Origin: Conexibacter woesei Iso977N
GTDB lineage: Bacteria; Actinomycetota; Thermoleophilia; Solirubrobacterales; Solirubrobacteraceae
Direction: 5' to 3'
Assembly: GCF_000424625.1 (NCBI RefSeq)
Contig: NZ_AUKG01000001.1
Span: 1-64,000 of the forward strand
Length of the DNA stretch: 64,000 bases
Positions within the stretch are counted from its first letter, which is position 1. Each line of letters starts with the position of its first letter. A program made the translations under genes and the position numbers. Below, in pieces: positions 14,056 through 24,518 of this stretch. The notes under the pieces are model-generated. The model searched no databases, was not told the DNA's origin, and saw only the letters and a list, made by a program, of their open reading frames with translations.

Positions 14056-14388
14056 TCATTCGTCCGGCTGGCCGTAACGGCCCGGCCCGACGGTGATCTG
14101 GCGCTCGGCGGCGACAGCCTCGACGACATCGGCTTCCTCGGCTTCGCGCTCGAGGTCCTCGTCGTGCTGGCCGTCGCAGAGCACGCGGAAGTTGCCGGTC
14201 ACGCCGCTGTCGGCGTGGATCGTGATGCCCGGCAGGATCTCCTCGCCCTCGTCGAAGCCGAGGCGCTCCAGGTCGAAGTGCGCCAGCCCGATCCCGTACG
14301 CGTTGTGCGTGGGGTTCTCGCGATCGTGGGCGTTGATCGCGATCTGGAAGGCCTTGAGGTTCTTGGCGATCTTCGACGTGTCGGACAT
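14056..14388 (-). CDS. Conserved-looking acidic protein, unknown
   Basis: 110 residues, acidic, no signal or membrane segment. It opens with an amphipathic helix (SKIAKNLKAFQIAINAHDRENP), followed by a beta-rich middle (GLAHFDLERLGFDEGEEILPGITIHADSGVTGNFRVLCDG) and a Glu-rich tail. I do not recognise the family. It starts nine bases after the stop of the ketopantoate-reductase-like gene on the same strand, so they are probably co-transcribed. Confidence 0.7.
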   Translation of the reverse strand: MSDTSKIAKNLKAFQIAINAHDRENPTHNAYGIGLAHFDLERLGFDEGEEILPGITIHADSGVTGNFRVLCDGQHDEDLEREAEEADVVEAVAAERQITVGPGRYGQPDE

Positions 14389-14397
14389 GCGCTGGGG

Positions 14398-15243
14398 CTA
14401 GAGGCTACCGATGTCGGTGACGAGCCTCGCGACGGTGGGCGTGTCGATCCCATGACGCTCCGCGGCGCGCAGCACGGCGCCGCCGATGGCGTCCAGCTCG
14501 TTGTCGCTCCGCCCCGCACCGACATCCGCGCGCAGCGACGACGACGCCGCGTCCGGGAGCGCATCCTGCTCGGCGATCACGGCGTCCGGATCGACGTCGG
14601 CGCCCTCGGCCCTGGCGACCTGCGCAACTTCCCGTGCAACCGCGGCGGCGGTCTCGCGCACCTCACCGAGCGGCCGGTCCGCGGCGGTCGTAGCAAGCGC
14701 GATCCCGGCCAACCGCGACAACTTGGTCCACAGCACATCCGCCTCGCTGCCACCGACCCTGTTCTCGATGCCGGCCTGCGTGAGCACATCGGTCAGCGCG
14801 GGCGCTCCGGGCTCGGCCACCGTGACCGTCAGGAACGGCGCCCGATGCACGATCACCGTCCGCCCCTCACGGTGCGCCTGCACCCGCACACTGCCGGCGA
14901 CCACATTCGCGAACCGCCGCCGCAGCACATCCATGTGATCAACCCCATTAAGAAGAGGCACAACCACCTCCGGCTCCCCCGCGATCCGCTCCAGAGCAGC
15001 GGCCAACTGCGGCGCCTTCACCGCAACGACGAGCGCACCCGGCGGCGTCTCCATCGCGGTGACCGCCGGCACCATCTCGACGTGATCGCCAAACGACGGC
15101 GACCGCACCTCGATCCCGCGCTCCCCGATCGCCTCGACCGACGCCTCCGTCGTCACGATCGCCGTCTGCACACCGGCCCGCTGCAGCTCCGCACCGATGA
15201 GCGCGCCAACCGCGCCGGACCCCAGGATGGCAATGGACGACAT
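14398..15243 (-). CDS. 2-dehydropantoate 2-reductase family protein
   Basis: 281 residues. An N-terminal Rossmann fold with SIAILGSGAVGALIGAEL (GxGxxG) binds NADP. The middle has VAVKAPQLAAAL, and PLLNGVDHMDVL matches the LxNG-type loop with the active-site Asn of PanE. WTKLSRLAGI starts the helical C-terminal domain, corresponding to the (W/K)xK(L)xxN region, although here the second motif Asn is not obvious. PanE reduces ketopantoate in pantothenate synthesis; many family members have other 2-oxoacid substrates, and no pantothenate genes are nearby. Its ATG overlaps that of a small divergent membrane protein on a CATG. Confidence 0.85.
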   Translation of the reverse strand: MSSIAILGSGAVGALIGAELQRAGVQTAIVTTEASVEAIGERGIEVRSPSFGDHVEMVPAVTAMETPPGALVVAVKAPQLAAALERIAGEPEVVVPLLNGVDHMDVLRRRFANVVAGSVRVQAHREGRTVIVHRAPFLTVTVAEPGAPALTDVLTQAGIENRVGGSEADVLWTKLSRLAGIALATTAADRPLGEVRETAAAVAREVAQVARAEGADVDPDAVIAEQDALPDAASSSLRADVGAGRSDNELDAIGGAVLRAAERHGIDTPTVARLVTDIGSL

Positions 15244-15496
15244 GCCGCCATCGTGGCATGATGCCGCCGTCTTGGCGCCTCCCCGCTATCTCGAAGGCGG
15301 CACCCGCCGACGTCCACGCCGCTTCCACCGGTTCCGCGAGTGGCTGGCATGGACCGTGGGGTCGGTGCTCGCCTGGGCGGTCATCGCCGGCCAGACGAAC
15401 GACAGCGCGCTCGGCAACGACCTCTACTGGGGCGCGTGGGCCGTTGTGATCGTCTGGAGCGCCCACCGGAGGCGGCGCACCAAGGCCGGCAGCTAG
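15242..15496 (+). CDS. Small basic membrane protein, unknown
   Basis: 84 residues from ATG 15242 (in-frame ATGs at 15227 and 15233 are alternatives). A basic N-terminal third (GGTRRRPRRFHRFREW) is followed by two hydrophobic stretches, WLAWTVGSVLAWAVIAG and LYWGAWAVVIVWSA, and a basic tail. This is a two-span inner-membrane topology with both ends inside by the positive-inside rule. No family recognised. It converges on the LOG gene with a 4-base overlap. Confidence 0.5.
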   Translation: MPPSWHDAAVLAPPRYLEGGTRRRPRRFHRFREWLAWTVGSVLAWAVIAGQTNDSALGNDLYWGAWAVVIVWSAHRRRRTKAGS

Positions 15497-16086
15497 GTCT
15501 GGTCCTCGTCCTGCAGCCAGCGGGTGGTCTTGGGGGATTCCCAGGACTCCATCGTGTCGAGCAGGGTGATGGGGTTGGGGTCGGAGATGAGGAACTTGCG
15601 GTGGTCGACCGAGATGAAGGACTCGGTCGTCATGTGGTCGAGGAGCGCCACCAAGGGCTGGTAGAAGCCGTCGACGTCGAGCAGGGCGATCGGCTTGCGG
15701 TGCAGGCCGAGCTGCGACCACGACAACATCTCGATGACCTCCTCGAGCGTGCCGATGCCGCCGGGCAGCACCAGGAACGCGTCGGAGAGGTCGGCCATCA
15801 GCATCTTGCGCTCGTGCATGGTGTCGACGACGCGCAGGTCGGTGACGCGCTTGTGGGCGACCTCGCGGTCGTCGAGGAACTTCGGGATCACGCCGATGAC
15901 CTCGCCGCCCGCCTCGAGCGCCGTGTCGGCCAGGACGCCCATGAGGCCGTTCGAGCCGCCGCCGTAGACGACGCCGGACCCGCGCCCGACGAGCTCCGTG
16001 ATCGCCGCACGCGACGCCTCGGCGTACTCCGGCCGCGCGCCGTCGGTCGAGCCCGCGTAGACGGCGACGCGCGCGAAGCGGCTCAT
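15493..16086 (-). CDS. LOG family protein (cytokinin riboside 5'-monophosphate phosphoribohydrolase-like)
   Basis: 197 residues from ATG 16086. The nucleotide-binding site of the LOG/TIGR00730 family is present as YGGGSNGLMG and LPGGIGTLEEVIEMLSW (PGGxGTxxE). Family enzymes cut N6-modified AMP into the free base and ribose 5-phosphate; older labels call them lysine decarboxylases. It is the last gene of a run of four with 4-base overlaps (DUF35, Ltp2-like, AGPS-like, LOG), so it is translated together with lipid-type enzymes, an unexpected partner set. Confidence 0.88.
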   Translation of the reverse strand: MSRFARVAVYAGSTDGARPEYAEASRAAITELVGRGSGVVYGGGSNGLMGVLADTALEAGGEVIGVIPKFLDDREVAHKRVTDLRVVDTMHERKMLMADLSDAFLVLPGGIGTLEEVIEMLSWSQLGLHRKPIALLDVDGFYQPLVALLDHMTTESFISVDHRKFLISDPNPITLLDTMESWESPKTTRWLQDEDQT

Positions 16087-17654
16087 GCGTCCACCAGCAC
16101 GCCGGGGTTCAGCACGCCGCCGGGGTCGACCGCGGACTTGACCGCTCTCAACGCGGCCGCGAACAGGTCCGGGCGCTGCGCGTCGTACCACTCGCGGTGG
16201 TCGCGGCCGACCGCATGGTGATGCGTGATCGTCCCGCCGGCCTCGATGATCGCGTCGCCCGCTGCGCGCTTCATGACCTCCCACTGTGCCAGCTCGTCGC
16301 CGCGCCGCGCCGGCGCCAGGACCGTGAAGTACGGCGCCGGGCCGTCCGGGTAGACGTGCGTCATCCGGCACGTCACGCGGCAGGGCTCGCCGAGCGCCTC
16401 GCGGACCGCGCCGGTGACGGACGCGTGGAACGCCGGCCAGCGGTCCCAGGTGATCGCGGTCTCGAACGTGTCGGAGAGGACACCGAGCTGCAGGAGCGCG
16501 TCGCGGAGGTAGGGCATCGCGATGAACGCCTCGCGCCATGCCCCGACCGCGCCGGAGCCGGAGCCGCTCGGCTGGTCCCACTCGCCCCCATGCTTCCGGC
16601 AGATCGCGAGCCCCGCGGCGAGCTGCGCGTCCACCTCGGCCGCCGTCGACTCGAAGCCCAGCACCAGCACCGCGTGCGTGCCGTCGCCCGCGCCCGTCTG
16701 CTGCGCCTCCAGCGCATCGACCAGCCGGCAGTTCGCCGGGTTCAGCCCGGACTGCGCCAGCTCCCGCACCGCGGCGCTCCCACCGTTCATGAAGTCCTTG
16801 AAGCGCACCGCGCGCGCGGCCCGGAACTGCGGCCGCGGCTGCACGCGCACCCACGCCTCGGTGATCACGCCGAGGATGCCCTCCGACCCCAACAACATGC
16901 GGTCGGGCGACGGCCCGGCGCCGGAGCCCGGCAGCCGCCGCGACTCCCACGCGCCGCTCGGCGTGATCGCCCGGACCGACTCCACGAGGTCGTCGACATG
17001 AGTCCAGACCGTCGCGAAGTGCCCGCCCGCGCGCGTCGCGATCCAGCCGCCGAGCGTCGACAGCTCGAACGACTGCGGGAAGAAGCGCATCGTCAGCCCG
17101 TGCTCACCGAGCTGGCGCTCCAGCGACGGCCCCGCGACGCCGCCCTGGATCCGCGCCGCGCGCGACACGTCATCCACCTCGAGAACACGGTCCATCCGCG
17201 ACAGGTCGAGCGACACCACGCCCAGCCGGTCGCTCGGGACCCGCGGCTCGACGCCGCCGACCACGCTCGTCCCGCCGCCGAACGGCACGACCGCCACGTC
17301 CTCGCGCGCCGCCCACTCCAGCGTCGCCTCGATCGCGTCCTCGTCGCGCGCGAACACCACGGCGTCCGGCGCGTGGTCGATCCGGCCCCGGAACGCCCGG
17401 ACCGTGTCCGGGAACGAGCGCCCGTAGGCGTGCTCGACGCGATCGCGCGGATCCGTCGACCACCCCTCGATCCCGTCCGGACGCGGGAAGCGCGGCTCCG
17501 GCAGGACCACCGAACCAAGTGCTACAGGTTGCTCGACGTCGCCGCTGAGCGGGAAGCCGAGCACGTCGCGGACCAGCGGCGCCAGCGCGACCGGGTCGAT
17601 CTTGCCGTCCTCGAACCCCCAACCCCACCACGCCCGCTGCCGGTGACCGCTCAT
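16083..17654 (-). CDS. FAD-linked oxidase related to alkylglycerone-phosphate synthase
   Basis: 523 residues. VAO/PCMH-type FAD domain with VVPFGGGTSVVGGVEP and LSTLGGWIATRAGGHFATVWTHVDD, as in alkyldihydroxyacetonephosphate synthase (AGPS). The N-terminus WWGWGFEDG and the C-terminal ITHHHAVGRDHREW are close to AGPS; the His cluster is catalytic there. AGPS replaces the acyl chain of acyl-DHAP by a fatty alcohol to form ether lipids. Actinomycete homologues are often of unknown substrate. ATGA overlaps at both ends (with the thiolase-like gene upstream and LOG downstream) argue for one operon. Confidence 0.88.
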   Translation of the reverse strand: MSGHRQRAWWGWGFEDGKIDPVALAPLVRDVLGFPLSGDVEQPVALGSVVLPEPRFPRPDGIEGWSTDPRDRVEHAYGRSFPDTVRAFRGRIDHAPDAVVFARDEDAIEATLEWAAREDVAVVPFGGGTSVVGGVEPRVPSDRLGVVSLDLSRMDRVLEVDDVSRAARIQGGVAGPSLERQLGEHGLTMRFFPQSFELSTLGGWIATRAGGHFATVWTHVDDLVESVRAITPSGAWESRRLPGSGAGPSPDRMLLGSEGILGVITEAWVRVQPRPQFRAARAVRFKDFMNGGSAAVRELAQSGLNPANCRLVDALEAQQTGAGDGTHAVLVLGFESTAAEVDAQLAAGLAICRKHGGEWDQPSGSGSGAVGAWREAFIAMPYLRDALLQLGVLSDTFETAITWDRWPAFHASVTGAVREALGEPCRVTCRMTHVYPDGPAPYFTVLAPARRGDELAQWEVMKRAAGDAIIEAGGTITHHHAVGRDHREWYDAQRPDLFAAALRAVKSAVDPGGVLNPGVLVDA

Positions 17655-18871
17655 CGCCCGACCCTAGAGCCACCGGCGGCGCGGCGCCGGCGGCCCATCG
17701 TCGCGCCCGCCGGCTCGCGCAGCCGCGCGACCTTCTTGCGCGGGCGCTCACTCAGCGCGTCCTCGCTCCCGAGCAGCACCGTCGCCTGCGTGGACAGGAC
17801 GCCGCCGTTGCCGTGGGCCAACACGATGTCCTTGCCTTCCTCCCGGACCTCGCGCACCGCCTCGACCAGCAGCGCCAGCCCGTTCATCCCCGCGTGGTTG
17901 TAGGACAACCCGCCGCCCGACGTGTTCATCCGGAAGTCCCCGCCCGGCGCCACGCGGCCGCCCTCCACGAACGCGCCGCCGTCGCCCTTCGCGCAGAACC
18001 CCAAGTCCTCCAAGAACAGGATCGGCGTGATCGTGAACGCGTCGTAGATCTGCGCGCTCTCGACGTCGGCCGGCCGCAGGCCCGCCTCGGCGAACGCCCG
18101 CGCGCCCGACTCCACCGCCGCGGTCCGCGTCAGGTCCGGCATCGCCGAGACGTGCCGGTGCGTCATCGCCTCCGCCGCGCCGAGCAGGAACACCGGCGGC
18201 CGGCGCAGCGCGCGAGCCCGCGCCGCGCTCACCACCACCAACGCGCCGCCGCCATCGGTCACCAGGCAGCAGTCGCGCACGCCGAACGGATCGCACACGC
18301 GCGGCGAGGCAAGGACATCATCAACGCTGAGGTCGTCCGTCGACCACGCCGGCGCGCCGCGCCGCTGCGCCCACTGCCGCGCCGCGACCGCGACCCACGC
18401 CAGCTGCTCCGGCGTCGTCCCGAACTCATGCATGTGCCGCGATGCCGCCAGCGCGTAGGCGGCCACAGGCAACGGCGGCGCGTACGGCGCCTCCCACGGG
18501 TCGCGCTCCTGCACCGACGCGGTCCCGCGCCCGACCGAGCGCTGCGTCGACCCGTAGGCGATCACGGCGACCTCGCACTGCCCGGCGCCGATCGCCGCCC
18601 GCGCGTGGTTGAGGTGCGCCATCGGCGACGCGCCGCCGATCATGGTGGAGTCGGTGAAGCGCGGCCGGACGCCCAGGTCCTCGGCGAGCGTCGTCGCCGC
18701 CCACGGGATCTGCGTGGCCGAGGCGAACACGCCGTCGACCTCCTCGATCGCGATCCCCGCGTCGGCCAGCGCGGCGCGCGCCGCCTCGGCCATCACGTCG
18801 GCGGCCGAGAGCCCCGGCAGCGCGACGCCCATCTGCGCCTCGGCGGCACCGACGATCGCCACGCCGGTCAC
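17651..18871 (-). CDS. Thiolase-fold lipid-transfer (Ltp2/SCPx-like) protein without the thiolase Cys
   Basis: 406 residues from GTG 18871, which overlaps the stop of the DUF35 gene (GTGA). Thiolase fold: GVAIVGAAEAQMG at the start, LVTDGGGALVVVSAARA in the middle, then YDAFTITPILFLEDLGF and NTSGGGLSYNHAGMNG near the end. In biosynthetic and degradative thiolases a Cys stands at the nucleophile position; the corresponding stretch here is MIGGASPMAHLNHA, with no Cys. This pattern, with the conserved Tyr and the HxxG, is that of Ltp2-type proteins, which with a DUF35 partner act as retro-aldolases in sterol side-chain breakdown. The substrate here is unknown. A basic tail of about 30 residues follows the domain. 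Confidence 0.82.
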   Translation of the reverse strand: MTGVAIVGAAEAQMGVALPGLSAADVMAEAARAALADAGIAIEEVDGVFASATQIPWAATTLAEDLGVRPRFTDSTMIGGASPMAHLNHARAAIGAGQCEVAVIAYGSTQRSVGRGTASVQERDPWEAPYAPPLPVAAYALAASRHMHEFGTTPEQLAWVAVAARQWAQRRGAPAWSTDDLSVDDVLASPRVCDPFGVRDCCLVTDGGGALVVVSAARARALRRPPVFLLGAAEAMTHRHVSAMPDLTRTAAVESGARAFAEAGLRPADVESAQIYDAFTITPILFLEDLGFCAKGDGGAFVEGGRVAPGGDFRMNTSGGGLSYNHAGMNGLALLVEAVREVREEGKDIVLAHGNGGVLSTQATVLLGSEDALSERPRKKVARLREPAGATMGRRRRAAGGSRVGR

Positions 18872-19227
18872 GACGCGACCACCACCTCGAAGACGGGCAG
18901 CGGCGCAGCGTCGGCCTCGTCCGGGCTCGGCTCCTCCCACGCCACCCGCACGCGCGCACCCACGACGACGTCCTCCGGGGCGACACCGCGAACGCGCGAC
19001 ATCATCCGGAACCCCTCGTCCAGGTCCACCAGAACCAAGTTGTAGGCCTCGCCTCCGCGCGGCCGTGCAACGGTCGTTGCGTAGACGACGCCCAACCCCG
19101 CCGAGACCCGCCATTCCTCCAGCCCCACCCGGGGCCGGAACGTCGCGCGACCGGCGCGATCCACCTGGTACGCCAGCTCCCGCCGGCGGCAGAACTCCGT
19201 ATACACGTCCGCGGGCGAGCGCTCCAA
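18868..19227 (-). CDS. DUF35 OB-fold protein, partner of the thiolase-like protein
   Basis: 119 residues if started at TTG 19227; no better start is visible before the divergent NUDIX gene. The C-terminal OB-fold is seen in LGVVYATTVARPRGG, YNLVLVDLDEGFRMMSRV and VVVGARVRVAWEE. Normal DUF35 proteins carry an N-terminal rubredoxin-like zinc ribbon with two CxxC; here that segment (FCRRRELAYQVDRAGRATFRPRVG) keeps its length but only one Cys. It should form a complex with the Ltp2-like protein encoded next, with which it shares a GTGA overlap. Confidence 0.75.
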   Translation of the reverse strand: MERSPADVYTEFCRRRELAYQVDRAGRATFRPRVGLEEWRVSAGLGVVYATTVARPRGGEAYNLVLVDLDEGFRMMSRVRGVAPEDVVVGARVRVAWEEPSPDEADAAPLPVFEVVVAS

Positions 19228-19255: not shown

Positions 19256-19912
19256 ATGACGCAAGCGCAGGCACCCGCGCTGCTCGCTCGCGGCCCTTGG
19301 GCCGGCGAGCAGGTCAACGCGGTCTGGCTGGACGAGGCCTTCGAACCCGACGCCGGGAAGGTCGAAGCCGCCGACGCCGCGATCGCCTCGCTGCGCGACC
19401 GCGGCTCGCCCGCCCACGACGGGATCGGCGCCCGCCTCGTCGAGTACGAAGCCACCCCCGAGGGCGCGTTGCACATCAAGTTGCAGCGCCTCCGCTGGGC
19501 CCTGCGCCTGGTCGAGGGCGACGCCTCCGAGACGATCTCCGCCCTCTGCGTGACCCGCGACGCCGACGGCCGCTGGCTCGCGGGCCGACGAGCCGCGTGG
19601 GTCGCCTCCTGGGCCGGGCGCTGGGCGCTCGGCGCCGGCGGCGCGGTCGACGAGGGCGAGTCACCCTTCACGACGCTCACCCGTGAGCTTCAAGAGGAGT
19701 GGTCGGTCGCCGCCGAGCGCGTCCAGGGCGAGGCGCTCGTGCGCCTGCCGCACAACATGATCATGTTCATCGGGCAGGCCTGGCTCCCGCCGGGTGCCGA
19801 GGTGGTCCCGGATCACGAGCACGACGCGTACGCGTGGTGGCCGGCCGAGATCGACGACTGGCCGCCCGAGGCCGACGAACCGCTGCGCGCCGTCGCGCGC
19901 CTCCTGCAGTAA
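19256..19912 (+). CDS. NUDIX hydrolase
   Basis: 218 residues. The Nudix box is present as GAVDEGE followed by RELQEEWSV, i.e. Gx5Ex7REx2EE, with Trp where the canonical box has an x-Gly after the EE pair. The metal-binding Glu residues are intact. The N-terminal 90 residues (LLARGPWAGEQVNAVW and a helical part) form an extra domain. Substrates are nucleoside-diphosphate-linked compounds of unknown type. The TAA stop abuts the GTG of the DUF3817 gene directly, so the two are coupled. Confidence 0.88.
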   Translation: MTQAQAPALLARGPWAGEQVNAVWLDEAFEPDAGKVEAADAAIASLRDRGSPAHDGIGARLVEYEATPEGALHIKLQRLRWALRLVEGDASETISALCVTRDADGRWLAGRRAAWVASWAGRWALGAGGAVDEGESPFTTLTRELQEEWSVAAERVQGEALVRLPHNMIMFIGQAWLPPGAEVVPDHEHDAYAWWPAEIDDWPPEADEPLRAVARLLQ

Positions 19913-20255: not shown

Positions 20256-23200
20256 ATGGCCGTCGAAGCCGCAGCTATCGAGGTCACCCTCCCCGCGATG
20301 GGGGAGTCGGTGACGGAAGGCACCATCCTGGAGTGGCACAAGCAGGAGGGTGACACCATCGAGGCAGACGAGACGCTCGTCGAGGTCTCGACCGACAAGG
20401 TCGACGCGGAGGTGCCCGCTCCCATCAGCGGCACCATCGTGAAGATCCACTTCGCCGAGGGCGACACCGTGCAGGTGGGCGCCGTCCTCGCGGAGATCGC
20501 GGCGGGTGACGGCAGTGCGGGATCCGCGTCTCCCAACGGCAACGGGAGTGGTGCGCCCGCAGCGGCGCCCGCCGACGACACGCCCGGCGAGATCGTCGAC
20601 ATCGTCACGCCCGCGGGCGGCGAGTCGGTGACCGAGGGCACCATCTTGGAGTGGGCGGTCAAGGTCGGCGACGTCGTCGGCGACGGCGACACGGTCGTGG
20701 AGATCTCGACCGACAAGGTCGACATGGAGCTCCCGTCCCCGGCGGCGGGCACGATCACCGAGCTGCTCGCCGAGGAGGGCGCGACCGTCACGGTCGGCCA
20801 GGTCATCGCGCGGCTGCAGCTCGGCTCCGGCAACGGCGCGAGCGCGCCCGCCGCGGCTCCCGCCTCCGGCAACGGCGCGGCTGCCGCAACGCCTACACCT
20901 TCCGGGACGGTCCCCGCCGACACCAAGGTCACCCCCGTCGCCGCGCGCGTCGCGGCCGACCAGGGCGTCGACCTCGGCCAGGTCACCGGCACCGGCCCGC
21001 AGGGCCGCATCACCAAGGACGACGTCCTGTCGTTCGATCCGGCCTCGGTCGTCGGCAAGAAGACCGTCCTCAAGGGCGGCGCCGCGATGCTCGCCCGCTA
21101 CATGGACGAGTCGCGCGAGATCCCGACCGCGACCTCGTTCCGGACGATCACCGTCACCGCGATGGACGCCCGGCGCAAGCAGCTCAAGGACGCCGGCCAG
21201 AAGGTCTCCTTCACGCACCTGATCGCGTACGCGATCTCGCTGGCCGCCCAGCAGGACATGCCGGTGATGGCGCACCACTTCGACACGATCGACGGCAGGC
21301 CGACGCGCATCGACGACGAGGCCGTCAACCTCGGCATCGCCGTCGACGTCCAGAAGAAGGACGGCTCGCGCACGCTGATGGTCCCGGTCATCCGGGACGC
21401 GGGCCGCCTGTCGTTCGCCGGCTTCAAGGCCGCCTTCGACGAGCTGATCGCCAAGGCGCGCGAGAACAAGCTGGGTGCCGACGACCTCGTCGGCGCCAAC
21501 GTCCAGCTGACGAACCCCGGCGGCATCGGCACGATCGCGTCCGTCCCGCGCCTGATGAAGGGCAACGGCACGATCATCGCGACCGGCTCGATCGCCTACC
21601 CGGTGGGCCTCGGGAACATCGGCGACATGATCGGCGCCGAGAAGGTCATGACCATGACCTCGACCTACGACCACCGCGTCATCCAGGGCGCGGAGTCCGG
21701 CCGGTTCCTGCAGGTCGTCGAGGCCTACCTCCAGGGCGAGAACGGCTTCTACGACGGCGTCTTCGCCTCGCTGGGCGCGCAGCTCGGCCCGGCGCCGACG
21801 CCGCCCGCGCCGGCTGCCGCCGCTGCCGCCGCGCGCGAGGCCCGCGCCGGCGACCGCCGCGCGCCGGTCATCGACGAGGAGCTGTTGCAGGCCGTCCAGG
21901 CGGCGACGTCGCTGCTGAAGGCGCACCGCACGCACGGCCACCTCGCCGCCAAGCTCGACCCGCTGGGCACCGAGCCCGAGGGCGATCCGGCGCTCGACCC
22001 GGACACCGTCGGCCTGACGCCGCAGCTGATGGCCCAGATCCCGGCGCGGATCCTGCGGATGCACGTCCCGGGCGCGACGCTCGCCGACGCGCTGCCGCAC
22101 CTGCGCGAGACCTACTGCGGGACGATCGCCTACGAGATCGAGCACATCGCCTCCCACCGCCAGCGCACCTGGCTGCGCGAGAAGATCGAGGGCGGCGAGT
22201 TCCGCAAGCCGCTGACGACCGAGGAGCAGAAGGCGCTGTTGACGCGCCTGATCGAGGTCGACGCGTTCGAGCGCTTCATGCACAAGGCCTACCTCGGCCA
22301 GAAGCAGTTCTCGATCGAGGGCCTCGACATGACGGTCCCGATGATCGACGAGGCGATCCAGCTCGCGGCCGCGCACGGCGCGCGTGAGGTCGTCGTCGGC
22401 ATGGCGCACCGCGGCCGGCTGAACGTGTTGGCCCATAACCTGGGTCGCCCGTACGAGACGATCTTCGCCGAGTTCGAGGGCGCCTCCACGCTGGAGGCCG
22501 TCACGACGATCCCGCAGGGCGGGACCGGCGACGTCAAGTACCACCACGGCGCCCAGGGCAGCTACCAGCTGCCCAACGGCGAGAGCGTGTTGGTGAACTT
22601 GGAGAGCAACCCCTCGCACTTGGAGTTCGTCGCCCCGGTCGTCGTCGGCGCCGCGCGCGCCGCGCAGACCACGCGCCAGGGCCCGCACGCCCACCGCGAC
22701 ACGGACGCGGCGATGCCGATCGTCCTGCACGGCGACGCGGCGTTCCCGGGCCAGGGCGTCGTCGCGGAGGCGCTGAACATGCAGGCGCTCGACGGCTACA
22801 AGGTCGGCGGCACGCTGCACCTCGTCACCAACAACCAGGTCGGCTTCACCACCGACCCGGAGGACGCGCGCTCCACGCGCTGGGCGTCGGACCTCGCCAA
22901 GGGCTACGACGTCCCGATCATCCACGTCAACGCCGACGACGTGCAGGCCTGCGTCCACGCGGTCCGGCTCGCGTTCGCCTACCGCGAGGAGTTCGGCCAC
23001 GACGTCGTCATCGACCTGATCGGCTACCGCCGCTTCGGCCACAACGAGGCCGACGAGCCCGCGTACACGCAGCCCGAGATGTACGCCAAGATCAAGGGCC
23101 ACAAGCGCGCGTCCGAGATCTGGGCGGAGCGCATGGTCAAGGACAACGTCGTGAGCAACGACGAGGTCGAGGCCGGCCGCCAGGAGGTCTGGGACCGCCT

Positions 23201-24518
23201 GAGCGCGCTGCACGCCGACCTGAAGGCCAAGATCAAGGCGGCCGAGGCGTCGGGCGGCGTGACCGCGCAGACCGGCGAGTACCAGCTCGACCGCTCGCCG
23301 TCGCCGGACGTGCCGACGGCCGTGTCGAGGGATCGCCTGGAGTCCCTGAACGAGGAGCTCCTGACGACGCCCGACGGCTTCACCGTCCACCCCAAGCTCG
23401 TCAAGCAGCTCGACACGCGCCGCGCGGCGATCGGCCCGGACGGCGGGATCACGTGGGCCCACGCGGAGCAGCTGGCGTACGCGTCGCTGCTGACCGAGGG
23501 CACGCCGATCCGCCTGACCGGCCAGGACGTCGAGCGCGGCACGTTCTCGCAGCGCCACCTCGTCCTGCACGACGCGAAGACCGGGCAGACGTTCTGCCCG
23601 ATCCAGTCGCTGCCGGGCGCGCTCGCACCGCTGGAGCTGCACAACTCCCCGCTGAGCGAGATCGCCTGCCTCGGCTTCGAGTACGGCTACTCCGCCGAGG
23701 CGCCCGAGACGCTGGTGCTCTGGGAGGCGCAGTTCGGCGACTTCGCCAACGGCGCGCAGGTCATCATCGACCAGTTCATCGTGTCCGGCCTGGCCAAGTG
23801 GGGCCAGACGTCGCGGCTGACGCTGCTGCTCCCGCACGGCTACGAGGGCTCGGGCCCGGAGCACTCCTCCGCCCGCATCGAGCGCTTCCTGCAGCTGGCG
23901 GCCGAGGGCAACATCCGCGTCGCCAACCTCACGACGCCGGCGCAGTACTTCCACCTGCTGCGCCGCCAGGCCCGGATCACCAAGCAGCGCCCGCTGGTGA
24001 TCTTCACGCCGAAGTCGCTGCTGCGCCTGCCGCAGGCCACGAACCGGATCGAGCACCTCGCCGAGTCGCGGTTCTTCCCGGTCCTCGGCGAGCCGCGCGT
24101 CCCGATCGAGAAGGTCACGCGCCTGGTGCTGTGCACCGGCAAGATCTACTACGACCTGGTCTCGCACCCCAACCGCAAGGACAACGAGAGCGTGGCCGTC
24201 GGCCGCATCGAGTTGCTCTACCCCTTCCCGGAGGGGCAGGTCCTGGAGCTCATCAACACCTACCCGAACCTCAGGGAGGTCGTGTGGGTGCAGGAGGAGC
24301 CGCGCAACATGGGCGCCCGCGCCCACATGTCGCCGCGCCTGCTGCAGGTGCTGCCGGACCACATCGCGTTCGGGTACATCGGGCGCCCGGAGCGCGCGAG
24401 CCCGGGCGAGGGCTACCCGGCCGCGCACACCGCCGAGCAGAACCGCATCCTGCGGACCGCGCTCGACGTGCAGACGCCGGTGAGCATGTACCCCATCAAG
24501 ACGCCGGGTGAGCGCTGA
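20256..24518 (+). CDS. kgd: Fused 2-oxoglutarate dehydrogenase: lipoyl-lipoyl-E3BD-E2-E1
   Basis: 1420 residues. Domains: lipoyl 1 (about 8-84, lipoyl Lys48 in STDKVD), lipoyl 2 (about 111-190, Lys154 in STDKVD), Ala/Gly/Pro linkers, peripheral-subunit (E3)-binding domain (about 224-260, VAARVAADQGVDLGQVTGTG), E2 acyltransferase core (about 270-500, His473 in YDHRVIQGAE, with Gln for the usual Asp as in mycobacterial Kgd), then a complete ThDP-dependent E1 (about 541-1420; KYHHGAQG, HGDAAFPGQGVV). It decarboxylates 2-oxoglutarate and passes the succinyl group to lipoate and CoA in the TCA cycle. Mycobacterium Kgd and Corynebacterium OdhA lack lipoyl and E3-binding domains. Here only E3 would be needed in trans. 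A purine-rich AAAAGAGA lies before the ATG. Confidence 0.96.
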   Translation: MAVEAAAIEVTLPAMGESVTEGTILEWHKQEGDTIEADETLVEVSTDKVDAEVPAPISGTIVKIHFAEGDTVQVGAVLAEIAAGDGSAGSASPNGNGSGAPAAAPADDTPGEIVDIVTPAGGESVTEGTILEWAVKVGDVVGDGDTVVEISTDKVDMELPSPAAGTITELLAEEGATVTVGQVIARLQLGSGNGASAPAAAPASGNGAAAATPTPSGTVPADTKVTPVAARVAADQGVDLGQVTGTGPQGRITKDDVLSFDPASVVGKKTVLKGGAAMLARYMDESREIPTATSFRTITVTAMDARRKQLKDAGQKVSFTHLIAYAISLAAQQDMPVMAHHFDTIDGRPTRIDDEAVNLGIAVDVQKKDGSRTLMVPVIRDAGRLSFAGFKAAFDELIAKARENKLGADDLVGANVQLTNPGGIGTIASVPRLMKGNGTIIATGSIAYPVGLGNIGDMIGAEKVMTMTSTYDHRVIQGAESGRFLQVVEAYLQGENGFYDGVFASLGAQLGPAPTPPAPAAAAAAAREARAGDRRAPVIDEELLQAVQAATSLLKAHRTHGHLAAKLDPLGTEPEGDPALDPDTVGLTPQLMAQIPARILRMHVPGATLADALPHLRETYCGTIAYEIEHIASHRQRTWLREKIEGGEFRKPLTTEEQKALLTRLIEVDAFERFMHKAYLGQKQFSIEGLDMTVPMIDEAIQLAAAHGAREVVVGMAHRGRLNVLAHNLGRPYETIFAEFEGASTLEAVTTIPQGGTGDVKYHHGAQGSYQLPNGESVLVNLESNPSHLEFVAPVVVGAARAAQTTRQGPHAHRDTDAAMPIVLHGDAAFPGQGVVAEALNMQALDGYKVGGTLHLVTNNQVGFTTDPEDARSTRWASDLAKGYDVPIIHVNADDVQACVHAVRLAFAYREEFGHDVVIDLIGYRRFGHNEADEPAYTQPEMYAKIKGHKRASEIWAERMVKDNVVSNDEVEAGRQEVWDRLSALHADLKAKIKAAEASGGVTAQTGEYQLDRSPSPDVPTAVSRDRLESLNEELLTTPDGFTVHPKLVKQLDTRRAAIGPDGGITWAHAEQLAYASLLTEGTPIRLTGQDVERGTFSQRHLVLHDAKTGQTFCPIQSLPGALAPLELHNSPLSEIACLGFEYGYSAEAPETLVLWEAQFGDFANGAQVIIDQFIVSGLAKWGQTSRLTLLLPHGYEGSGPEHSSARIERFLQLAAEGNIRVANLTTPAQYFHLLRRQARITKQRPLVIFTPKSLLRLPQATNRIEHLAESRFFPVLGEPRVPIEKVTRLVLCTGKIYYDLVSHPNRKDNESVAVGRIELLYPFPEGQVLELINTYPNLREVVWVQEEPRNMGARAHMSPRLLQVLPDHIAFGYIGRPERASPGEGYPAAHTAEQNRILRTALDVQTPVSMYPIKTPGER

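What the first reader, a model, noticed from the sequence alone, without database searches (positions are those of the whole stretch)
15493..19227. Four-gene coupled operon: DUF35, Cys-less thiolase, AGPS-like flavoenzyme, LOG
All three junctions are 4-base overlaps (GTGA, ATGA, ATGA), so the four proteins are made together. DUF35 plus Ltp2-like proteins make retro-aldolases of sterol side chains; AGPS-like enzymes act on lipid glycerol phosphates or related alcohols; LOG enzymes cut modified AMP. I know of no described pathway with this set. A new lipid or CoA/nucleotide-linked pathway is possible.
Basis: partly seen in the sequence, partly recalled or inferred. Interest (0 to 1): 0.55.

Follow-up and report, generated by a model that had tools for sequence, protein, structure and literature searches.

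The report
Composite operon: aldolase pair plus neighbours
Four overlapping soil-bacterium genes look like one new pathway, but comparison with relatives points to an aldolase-like enzyme pair and a third, unrelated gene placed beside an older lipid-enzyme gene; the unusual aldolase pair and the possible ether-lipid enzyme are the parts worth testing.

Summary
In detail: four minus-strand genes (15493-19227) joined by three 4-base overlaps. The single-pathway reading does not. The order DUF35-thiolase-AGPS-LOG occurs in 3 of 146 family genomes, all one genus. AGPS has an ortholog in 74 of 146; in 18 of 23 fetched AGPS loci without the pair it stands 14-209 bp from a divergent Nudix gene. The DUF35-thiolase pair lies there in 10 genomes, LOG in 3. 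Across bacteria the pair is the unit: of the 80 best thiolase relatives kept, 80 have DUF35 directly upstream, 1 has AGPS and 0 have LOG in the flanks held. The 'thiolase' lacks all three thiolase cysteines and is nearest in fold to 4u4e (function unknown) and the steroid-side-chain aldolases CtSal and TcLtp2, but with its own residue set (YDAF plus the old thiolase histidine) and a DUF35 partner without zinc ribbon: a probable variant retro-aldolase. The AGPS-like protein has the AGPS fold and most active-site residues; in a sister family it sits beside a fatty-acyl-reductase/SDR fusion, so an ether-lipid role is plausible but unproven. LOG is ordinary. Best reading: a composite operon of separate functions.

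The parts
18868..19227 (-). DUF35 (OB_ChsH2_C) partner protein, 119 aa, TTG start; N-terminal zinc ribbon missing (one Cys, knuckle loop deleted)
   Evidence: PF01796 49.5 bits; PDB partners 6ok1_B, 9myr_B; zinc-ribbon region compared
17651..18871 (-). Thiolase-fold retro-aldolase-like protein, 406 aa, GTG start
   Evidence: PRK06158 501.7 bits; PDB 4u4e, 9myr, 6ok1; Foldseek's first three entries are the same
18035..18046 (-). YDAF motif (Y276-F279), place of HDCF in thiolases, YDHF in TcLtp2, YDCY in CtSal
   Evidence: alignments; motifs of TcLtp2/CtSal from PMC12329534 (passages)
17894..17896 (-). His326 codon (SYNHAG), aligned with the thiolase GHP histidine and, by counting from the GG, with Tyr344 of TcLtp2 and Gln352 of CtSal
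   Evidence: His in 102 of 102 rows
16083..17654 (-). AGPS-like FAD enzyme, 523 aa
   Evidence: PF01565+PF02913; phmmer to 2uuu/4bby; Foldseek ranks 1-37 are AGPS/ADPS chains
16215..16223 (-). HHH motif (residues 478-480) of the AGPS-like protein, aligned with His615-617 of guinea pig AGPS
   Evidence: alignment; 40 of 41 rows, one gap
15493..16086 (-). LOG (TIGR00730) phosphoribohydrolase-like protein, 197 aa
   Evidence: TIGR00730 180 bits, cut-off 96.35; PDB 5zbj
14398..15243 (-). ApbA/PanE-like reductase, 281 aa: directly downstream of AGPS in 10 of 33 AGPS loci (context gene)
   Evidence: PF02558+PF08546; spacing
19256..19912 (+). Nudix protein, divergent gene next to AGPS in relatives without the pair (context gene)
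   Evidence: PF00293; spacing

Best explanation
This is a composite operon, not one pathway. A gene for an AGPS-like flavoenzyme stands, in relatives, divergent from a Nudix gene and often directly in front of an ApbA-like reductase (shown by comparison). In this genus and a second one a self-contained two-gene module, DUF35 + thiolase-fold protein, lies between Nudix and AGPS, and in part of this genus a LOG gene lies between AGPS and ApbA (order shown; gain rather than loss is inferred). The module most likely is a DUF35-stabilised, CoA-dependent retro-aldolase: Tyr276 of YDAF takes a proton from the beta-hydroxyl of a beta-hydroxyacyl-CoA, the C-C bond breaks to a carbonyl product plus a shorter acyl-CoA enolate, and His326 (the old thiolase histidine, at the place of Tyr344 in TcLtp2) may give the enolate its proton (inferred). 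The substrate is unknown. The AGPS-like enzyme probably does AGPS-type chemistry on an acyl-glycerone phosphate (inferred from fold and residues); LOG is a nucleotide-clearing phosphoribohydrolase (family name, not tested). Coupling gives co-expression, not necessarily shared metabolites.
For: Four-gene order in G000, G005, G006 only, of 146 family genomes. AGPS ortholog (E <= 2e-172) in 74 of 146; at E <= 1e-100 also in 38 genomes of other families, all of the same order, in a draw of 299 from the class. Of 33 AGPS loci examined (32 fetched plus the window), 23 lack the pair: Nudix-AGPS distance 14-209 bp in 18, 718/1154/1591 bp in three, no Nudix found in two; with the pair it is 1459-3124 bp in 9 of 10, no Nudix on the contig in one. 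ApbA starts -7 to +22 bp after AGPS in 10 of 33, none of them with LOG. The pair travels alone: DUF35 directly upstream in 80 of the 80 best thiolase loci kept; AGPS in the held flanks of 1, LOG of 0. Pair without AGPS ortholog in G020 and G033, 94% and 99% complete. Aldolase reading: no catalytic Cys; after 4u4e the nearest solved relatives are the CtSal-DUF35 and TcLtp2-DUF35 aldolases; Tyr276 and His326 in 102 of 102 rows; neighbour clusters in the 80 loci whose representatives are MaoC hydratase (19 loci), acyl-CoA dehydrogenases (21 and 14) and a CoA ligase (15).
Against: The thiolase-AGPS 4-base overlap is kept in all 5 genus members in which it can be seen (G000, G005-G008), which suggests selection for joint expression. 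The interval where LOG sits is 765-1022 bp in G008, G113 and G021 although no LOG was found there, so LOG was not simply slipped between touching genes. The thiolase tree puts the 7 labelled AGPS-locus rows in one 11-row set (99/91) but needs 4 label changes, so a single insertion is compatible, not shown. No activity is known to me for PRK06158 proteins. The acid of CtSal (Cys304) is Ala here, so aldolase chemistry is an extrapolation. YDAF conservation in the 80 loci is partly by construction (search pattern). Other neighbour clusters (SelR, GNAT, 7 loci each) do not speak for CoA catabolism. Most G genomes are drafts.
Confidence: 0.62

Rival explanations
1. A functional link exists: the aldolase pair cleaves beta-hydroxyacyl-CoA to a fatty aldehyde, the aldehyde is reduced to a fatty alcohol by the FAR/SDR fusion encoded elsewhere, and the AGPS-like enzyme puts the alcohol into an ether lipid. 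The operon then supplies the alkyl chain.
For: Overlap thiolase-AGPS kept in 5 of 5 visible genus members; own genome carries a FAR/SDR-type gene (660-aa ORF at L201 5808-7790, contig C2); in family f2 this fusion lies -2 to +529 bp before AGPS in 11 of 12 fetched loci; FCR1/Rv3391 reduces fatty acyl-CoA to aldehyde and alcohol (abstract start in listing, PMC3522743).
Against: Only 10 of the 74 genomes with an AGPS ortholog have the pair beside it, and G020 and G033 have the pair without AGPS ortholog. A FAR enzyme already makes alcohol from acyl-CoA, so the aldolase is not needed.
Confidence: 0.13
2. All four proteins form one dedicated new pathway, LOG included.
For: Three 4-base overlaps in a row in G000 and G006.
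Against: LOG at this place in 3 of 146; 82 bp after AGPS in G005; not found in one-contig G008 at E <= 1e-40; LOG in 0 of 80 thiolase loci.
Confidence: 0.05
3. The DUF35-thiolase pair is not an aldolase but a Cys-free acyl-transfer or decarboxylating enzyme, or a binding complex.
For: His of the thiolase GHP motif is kept, unlike TcLtp2 and CtSal; PhlABC-type acyltransferases are also thiolase-fold relatives (rows).
Against: All three thiolase cysteines absent; nearest relatives of known function are aldolases.
Confidence: 0.2
4. The AGPS-like protein is a D-2-hydroxyacid type oxidase, not an alkyl-glycerone-phosphate synthase; with ApbA it interconverts 2-hydroxy and 2-oxo acids. (Not exclusive of the composite-operon reading.)
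For: GlcD and D-lactate dehydrogenase hits (from rank 38); His300 of AGPS is Phe in the window; ApbA-like reductase directly downstream in 10 of 33 loci.
Against: The 37 best structural matches are AGPS/ADPS; HHH, Tyr578, Arg419, Arg515 equivalents kept; His at the His300 place in 30 of 52 orthologs of the order; FAR/SDR neighbour in f2.
Confidence: 0.3

Closest known systems
CtSal-CtShy(DUF35) bile-acid side-chain aldolase (PDB 9myr; PMC12329534)
   Same: Fold, DUF35 partner, Gly at the nucleophile Cys, catalytic Tyr kept (Tyr302 ~ Tyr276)
   Different: Acid Cys304 is Ala here; Gln352 is His here; DUF35 here has no zinc ribbon and is a separate protein, not a MaoC fusion
TcLtp2-ChsH2(DUF35) cholesterol side-chain aldolase (PDB 6ok1)
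   Same: Fold, DUF35 partner, catalytic base Tyr294 ~ Tyr276
   Different: His296 is Ala here and Tyr344 is His here
Putative thiolase of Sphaerobacter thermophilus (PDB 4u4e)
   Same: Closest structure (47% identity by Foldseek); YDSF + SYTH + HGTGG, same kind of active site
   Different: No function known to me; YDSF instead of YDAF
ipfDE retro-aldolase of ibuprofen degradation (PMC9195938, passages)
   Same: Thiolase-like gene pair that cleaves a CoA thioester to propionyl-CoA and an aromatic product; shows that substrates need not be steroids
   Different: Sequence relation to the window pair not tested here; ipfE as a DUF35 protein is recalled, not seen in the passages
Alkyldihydroxyacetonephosphate synthase (AGPS/ADPS; PDB 4bby, 2uuu) and MXAN_1676 of Myxococcus xanthus
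   Same: Fold, FAD domains, most active-site residues; in M. xanthus (PMC9131029, passages) and in family f2 here the neighbour is a FAR-type reductase
   Different: 24-30% identity to solved AGPS; His300 is Phe in the window; no GNPAT-like gene was noticed beside it (not searched for)
LOG cytokinin riboside 5'-monophosphate phosphoribohydrolase (PDB 5zbj)
   Same: TIGR00730 member with PGGIGTLEE motif
   Different: Nothing notable except the neighbours

Membership tests
Thiolase (SCP2-type) | Nucleophilic Cys in the N-terminal half | tested here: not met
   Gly at the aligned place, GG in 102 of 102 rows
Thiolase (SCP2-type) | HDCF and C-terminal CxG cysteine | tested here: not met
   YDAF and HGNGG
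Thiolase (SCP2-type) | GHP histidine | tested here: met
   His326, 102 of 102 rows
Ltp2/Sal DUF35-dependent aldolases | Catalytic base Tyr of the YDxF/Y motif | tested here: met
   Tyr276; role from PMC12329534 passages
Ltp2/Sal DUF35-dependent aldolases | Catalytic acid: Tyr344 (TcLtp2) or Cys304 (CtSal) | tested here: not met
   His and Ala at these places; so 'works like', not filed as member
Ltp2/Sal DUF35-dependent aldolases | DUF35 partner encoded next to it | tested here: met
   80 of the 80 loci kept
Ltp2/Sal DUF35-dependent aldolases | Retro-aldol activity, complex formation | not testable with these tools
   no wet assay; no complex prediction offered
DUF35 (PF01796) | OB-fold domain | tested here: met
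   49.5 bits, cut-off 27.1
DUF35 (PF01796) | N-terminal zinc ribbon; a 2010 paper states the two-domain architecture is conserved in all DUF35 homologs (PMC2954200, passages) | tested here: not met
   1 Cys in that segment of the window protein; 0-2 Cys in 71 of 96 partners, 4-5 in 25 of 96
AGPS | FAD_binding_4 + FAD-oxidase_C and AGPS fold | tested here: met
AGPS | Arg419, Arg515, Tyr578, His615-617 equivalents | tested here: met
   Arg419 and Tyr578 as mutated residues from PDB titles, the rest and all roles recalled
AGPS | His300 equivalent (role recalled) | tested here: not met
   Phe in the window; F 24, H 16, C 1 of 41 rows; H 30, F 20, C 2 of 52 rows of the order
AGPS | Alkyl-DHAP synthase activity | not testable with these tools
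   needs assay or lipidome
LOG (TIGR00730) | Family score and PGGxGTxxE motif (motif recalled) | tested here: met
   180 bits, cut-off 96.35; PGGIGTLEE in the protein

The most novel reading that the evidence does not exclude
The AGPS-like gene is the core of an aerobic alkyl-ether-lipid route in an actinobacterial order (Solirubrobacterales and kin): AGPS plus a single fusion protein that joins a fatty-acyl reductase domain to an SDR domain that could be the alkyl-glycerone-phosphate reductase, with the zinc-free DUF35 aldolase pair as an optional supplier of long-chain aldehyde in this genus.
Probability: 0.25. Interest if true: 0.6.

Novelty: new variant of a known kind. Interest (0 to 1): 0.36.

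Why it matters
The widespread PRK06158-type 'thiolases' carry the NCBI name acetyl-CoA acetyltransferase, which their active site speaks against. They show a third residue pattern among DUF35-partnered aldolase-like enzymes (Tyr/His, after Tyr/Tyr and Tyr/Cys), many with a DUF35 that has lost its zinc ribbon. If they are aldolases this corrects annotation in many genomes and offers C-C bond-cleaving catalysts of new specificity. The AGPS context would, if confirmed, give a testable ether-lipid route in a little-studied actinobacterial order.

Tried and rejected
One four-step pathway: rejected on gene order. Sterol catabolism: considered by analogy only; steroid genes were not sought in the genome. 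DprE1-like arabinan chemistry for the FAD enzyme (because a decaprenyl-phosphate phosphoribosyltransferase-like UbiA follows AGPS in 10 of 12 f2 loci): set aside, since none of the 50 listed structural matches is DprE1 and the C-terminal domain is PF02913. Plasmalogen route via CarF (PF10520): 0 of 146, but the 14 control genomes were silent too, so this proves nothing; same for PF03015 in the own genome. Promoters and terminators: 0 found by consensus scan, uninformative at this GC. Neighbourhoods of the AGPS paralog (L202) and of the FAR/SDR gene (L201) of the own genome: ORFs listed only, no lead. Literature, in the held open library only: papers with at least 3 of the terms lonely guy, alkyldihydroxyacetonephosphate synthase, lipid-transfer protein, operon: 0; residue roles of AGPS: no fitting paper, hence recalled; ether lipids with Solirubrobacter/Thermoleophil-/Rubrobacter: 80 papers hold 3 of 6 terms, 15 listed, none of the listed titles on such lipids in this order.
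Full report
1. What is there. The window is a 68-79% GC contig (2-kb steps; G000:C1:1-64000, 5.7 Mb genome). Its family holds a Conexibacter (L148 is the same gene as in G030) and a Solirubrobacteraceae MAG (L167, same as G019) by zero-length branches in the tree, so it is a Solirubrobacterales-type genome (inference). The four genes and three 4-base overlaps are as described. A crude gene call found a 4-base overlap in 1 of 27 same-strand neighbour pairs in the window, the thiolase-AGPS one; it missed DUF35 and LOG, so the other two junctions were not counted by it. Three overlaps in a row are therefore unusual for this window, and joint expression is likely.

2. Is the order conserved? I searched 146 genomes of the family with each protein. 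At E <= 2e-172 AGPS has an ortholog in 74 of 146. All four genes lie together in G000, G005 and G006, all in one genus of 7 held genomes. Of the other four, G008 (one contig) has DUF35-thiolase-AGPS and no LOG with E <= 1e-40; G007's contig ends inside AGPS; G009's ends at the thiolase; G010 (65% complete) shows no such set. By coordinates and the thiolase is next to AGPS in 10 genomes (G000, G005-G008, G113-G115, G117, G119). Two of these are imperfect: in G113 about 1.6 kb with other ORFs, one weakly SgcJ/SnoaL-like, separates thiolase and AGPS, and in G119 a contig break falls within the thiolase. In G038, G040 and G055 both exist, but AGPS stands beside Nudix without the pair and the pair lies on another contig. 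G020 and G033 carry the pair without an AGPS ortholog. Thiolase-AGPS overlaps by 4 bases in all five genus members where it can be seen. AGPS-LOG overlaps by 4 bases in G000 and G006 and is an 82-bp gap in G005; DUF35-thiolase overlaps by 4 bases in most but not in G005 (85 bp gap) or G007 (1 bp gap) (starts chosen by alignment to the window).

3. The neighbourhood of AGPS. I fetched wider stretches for a choice of the 74 genomes; 33 AGPS loci (window included) could be measured. Of 23 without the pair, Nudix and AGPS are divergent and 14-209 bp apart in 18; in three (L061, L062, L075) they are 718, 1591 and 1154 bp apart, and in two (L078, L079) no Nudix was found. Of 10 with the pair (one only as a thiolase end, L088), the distance is 1459-3124 bp in 9 and no Nudix is on the contig of the tenth. 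Downstream, an ApbA-like reductase starts -7 to +22 bp after AGPS in 10 of 33, 602-1022 bp after it in 6, 5076 bp in 1, and was not found in 16 (some contigs end early). LOG lies in the AGPS-ApbA interval in 3 of the 6; in the other 3 (G008, G113, G021) the interval is 765-1022 bp without a detected LOG, so I do not claim that LOG was inserted between touching genes. In 20 AGPS loci from three other families of the order none had this Nudix, ApbA, LOG or thiolase in the stretch held.

4. The pair across bacteria. DUF35 is directly upstream on the same strand in 80 of 80; an AGPS homolog is in the held flank (up to 8 kb a side, often less) in 1 (L102, a Solirubrobacterales contig equal to G115's), LOG in 0. 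Recurrent neighbour clusters, with representatives scanned by Pfam: MaoC hydratase (19 loci), acyl-CoA dehydrogenases (21 and 14), ATP-grasp CoA ligase (15), and, not of this kind, SelR and GNAT (7 each). Larger clusters that look like enoyl-CoA hydratase (38 loci), Bug receptor (32) and CaiB (24) were read from their sequences, not scanned. The setting is mostly CoA-thioester catabolism. The tree places the Solirubrobacterales set (16 rows, 99/92) beside 49 rows of Pseudomonadota (99/99 for the joint 65 rows). The 7 labelled AGPS-locus rows fall in an 11-row set (99/91) but need 4 label changes; L102 (a copy of G115), G116, G009 and G033 in that set were unlabelled.

5. Active site. Against solved structures and in the 22-row alignment: nucleophile Cys -> Gly (G79-G80; GG in 102 of 102 rows), HDCF -> YDAF, GHP His kept as His326, C-terminal Cys motif -> HGNGG. 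PMC12329534 (abstract and passages) gives TcLtp2 Tyr294 (YDHF) as base and Tyr344 as acid, CtSal Tyr302 as base and Cys304 (YDCY) as acid, with Tyr344 ~ Gln352. By counting from the GG in the alignments His326 sits at Tyr344/Gln352. Tyr276 and His326 are present in 102 of 102 rows, four of which are genes counted twice. Caution: one of the two peptide patterns used to fetch the 80 loci was YDAFTI[TN][PT], so the YDAF count is biased; 4u4e has YDSF. The AlphaFold2 model (mean pLDDT 83.8, but 319-325 below 50, next to His326) matches 4u4e, CtSal and TcLtp2 first.

6. DUF35 without zinc ribbon. The region of the zinc ribbon has 0-2 Cys in 71 of 96 partner proteins and 4-5 in 25 of 96 (a few genes are in twice); in the window one Cys remains and the knuckle loop is gone. 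On the thiolase tree the two states need 4 changes over 93 rows. PMC2954200 (passages) states that the two-domain architecture is conserved in all DUF35 homologs, and PMC12329534 calls three zinc cysteines conserved in the homologs it compares. My one search on this point (9 papers listed) showed no title or abstract start on a zinc-free group; I did not read all nine.

7. AGPS. The model (pLDDT 82.4) has AGPS/ADPS chains as its 37 best structural matches, at 24-30% identity, then D-lactate dehydrogenases. Equivalents of Arg419, Arg515, Tyr578 and His615-617 are kept. His300 is Phe in the window, F 24, H 16, C 1 in 41 rows, and H 30, F 20, C 2 in 52 rows over the order. In sister family f2 an NAD_binding_4 + SDR fusion (PRK07201) lies -2 to +529 bp before AGPS in 11 of the 12 loci fetched, and in 0 of 8 loci of f3/f4; a UbiA protein follows 31-1291 bp after AGPS in 10 of 12. 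A match to the fusion at E <= 1e-60 is in 133 of 146 family genomes; many show both halves in one long ORF, some (mainly one genus) only one half. The own genome has it as a 660-aa ORF on contig C2, far from AGPS on C1. In M. xanthus MXAN_1676 (AGPS) is followed by a FAR1-like/GNPAT-like protein and contributes slightly to ether lipids (PMC9131029, passages). That PRK07201 corresponds to Rv3391/FCR1 is recalled, not tested; FCR1 activity is from the abstract start of PMC3522743 (listing).

8. LOG. An ordinary TIGR00730 protein, best solved match 5zbj. 36 of 146 family genomes have a LOG at E <= 1e-40; in 33 of them it is not beside an AGPS ortholog as far as the contigs show.

9. Verdict. A real, tightly coupled operon of composite make-up; the coherent new element is the DUF35 without zinc ribbon plus Cys-free thiolase-fold protein as a probable variant retro-aldolase. 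The AGPS gene deserves its own test as an ether-lipid enzyme. The four-gene pathway reading is disfavoured.

Noticed in passing
window 20256-24518 (+): 1420-aa 2-oxoglutarate dehydrogenase fusion with two N-terminal lipoyl domains, E3-binding, E2 catalytic and E1 parts; its cluster is found in 33 of the 41 stretches. Mycobacterial Kgd, as I recall, lacks the lipoyl domains.
   Followed up: no
window 15197-15496 (+): A 99-aa ORF with a hydrophobic stretch, convergent with LOG (4-base overlap of the ends) and overlapping the start of the ApbA-like ORF; no Pfam or NCBIfam match. May be a small membrane protein.
   Followed up: no
window 14056-14388 (-): 110-aa protein without any Pfam or NCBIfam match; its cluster is found in 22 of the 41 stretches.
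   Followed up: no
L181-L184, L192, L193, L195-L197, L199, L200: Family f2: FAR-like + SDR fusion, AGPS-like and (in 10 of 12 loci) UbiA/decaprenyl-phosphate phosphoribosyltransferase-like genes in a row.
   Followed up: partly
G000:C1:1231288-1232733 (L202): A second AGPS-like gene, 44% identical, in the own genome; paralogs of similar identity in many relatives.
   Followed up: partly
L084 9470-9970 (-): Small ORF between thiolase and AGPS in G113, a weak TIGR02246 (SgcJ/EcaC) match below the cut-off.
   Followed up: no
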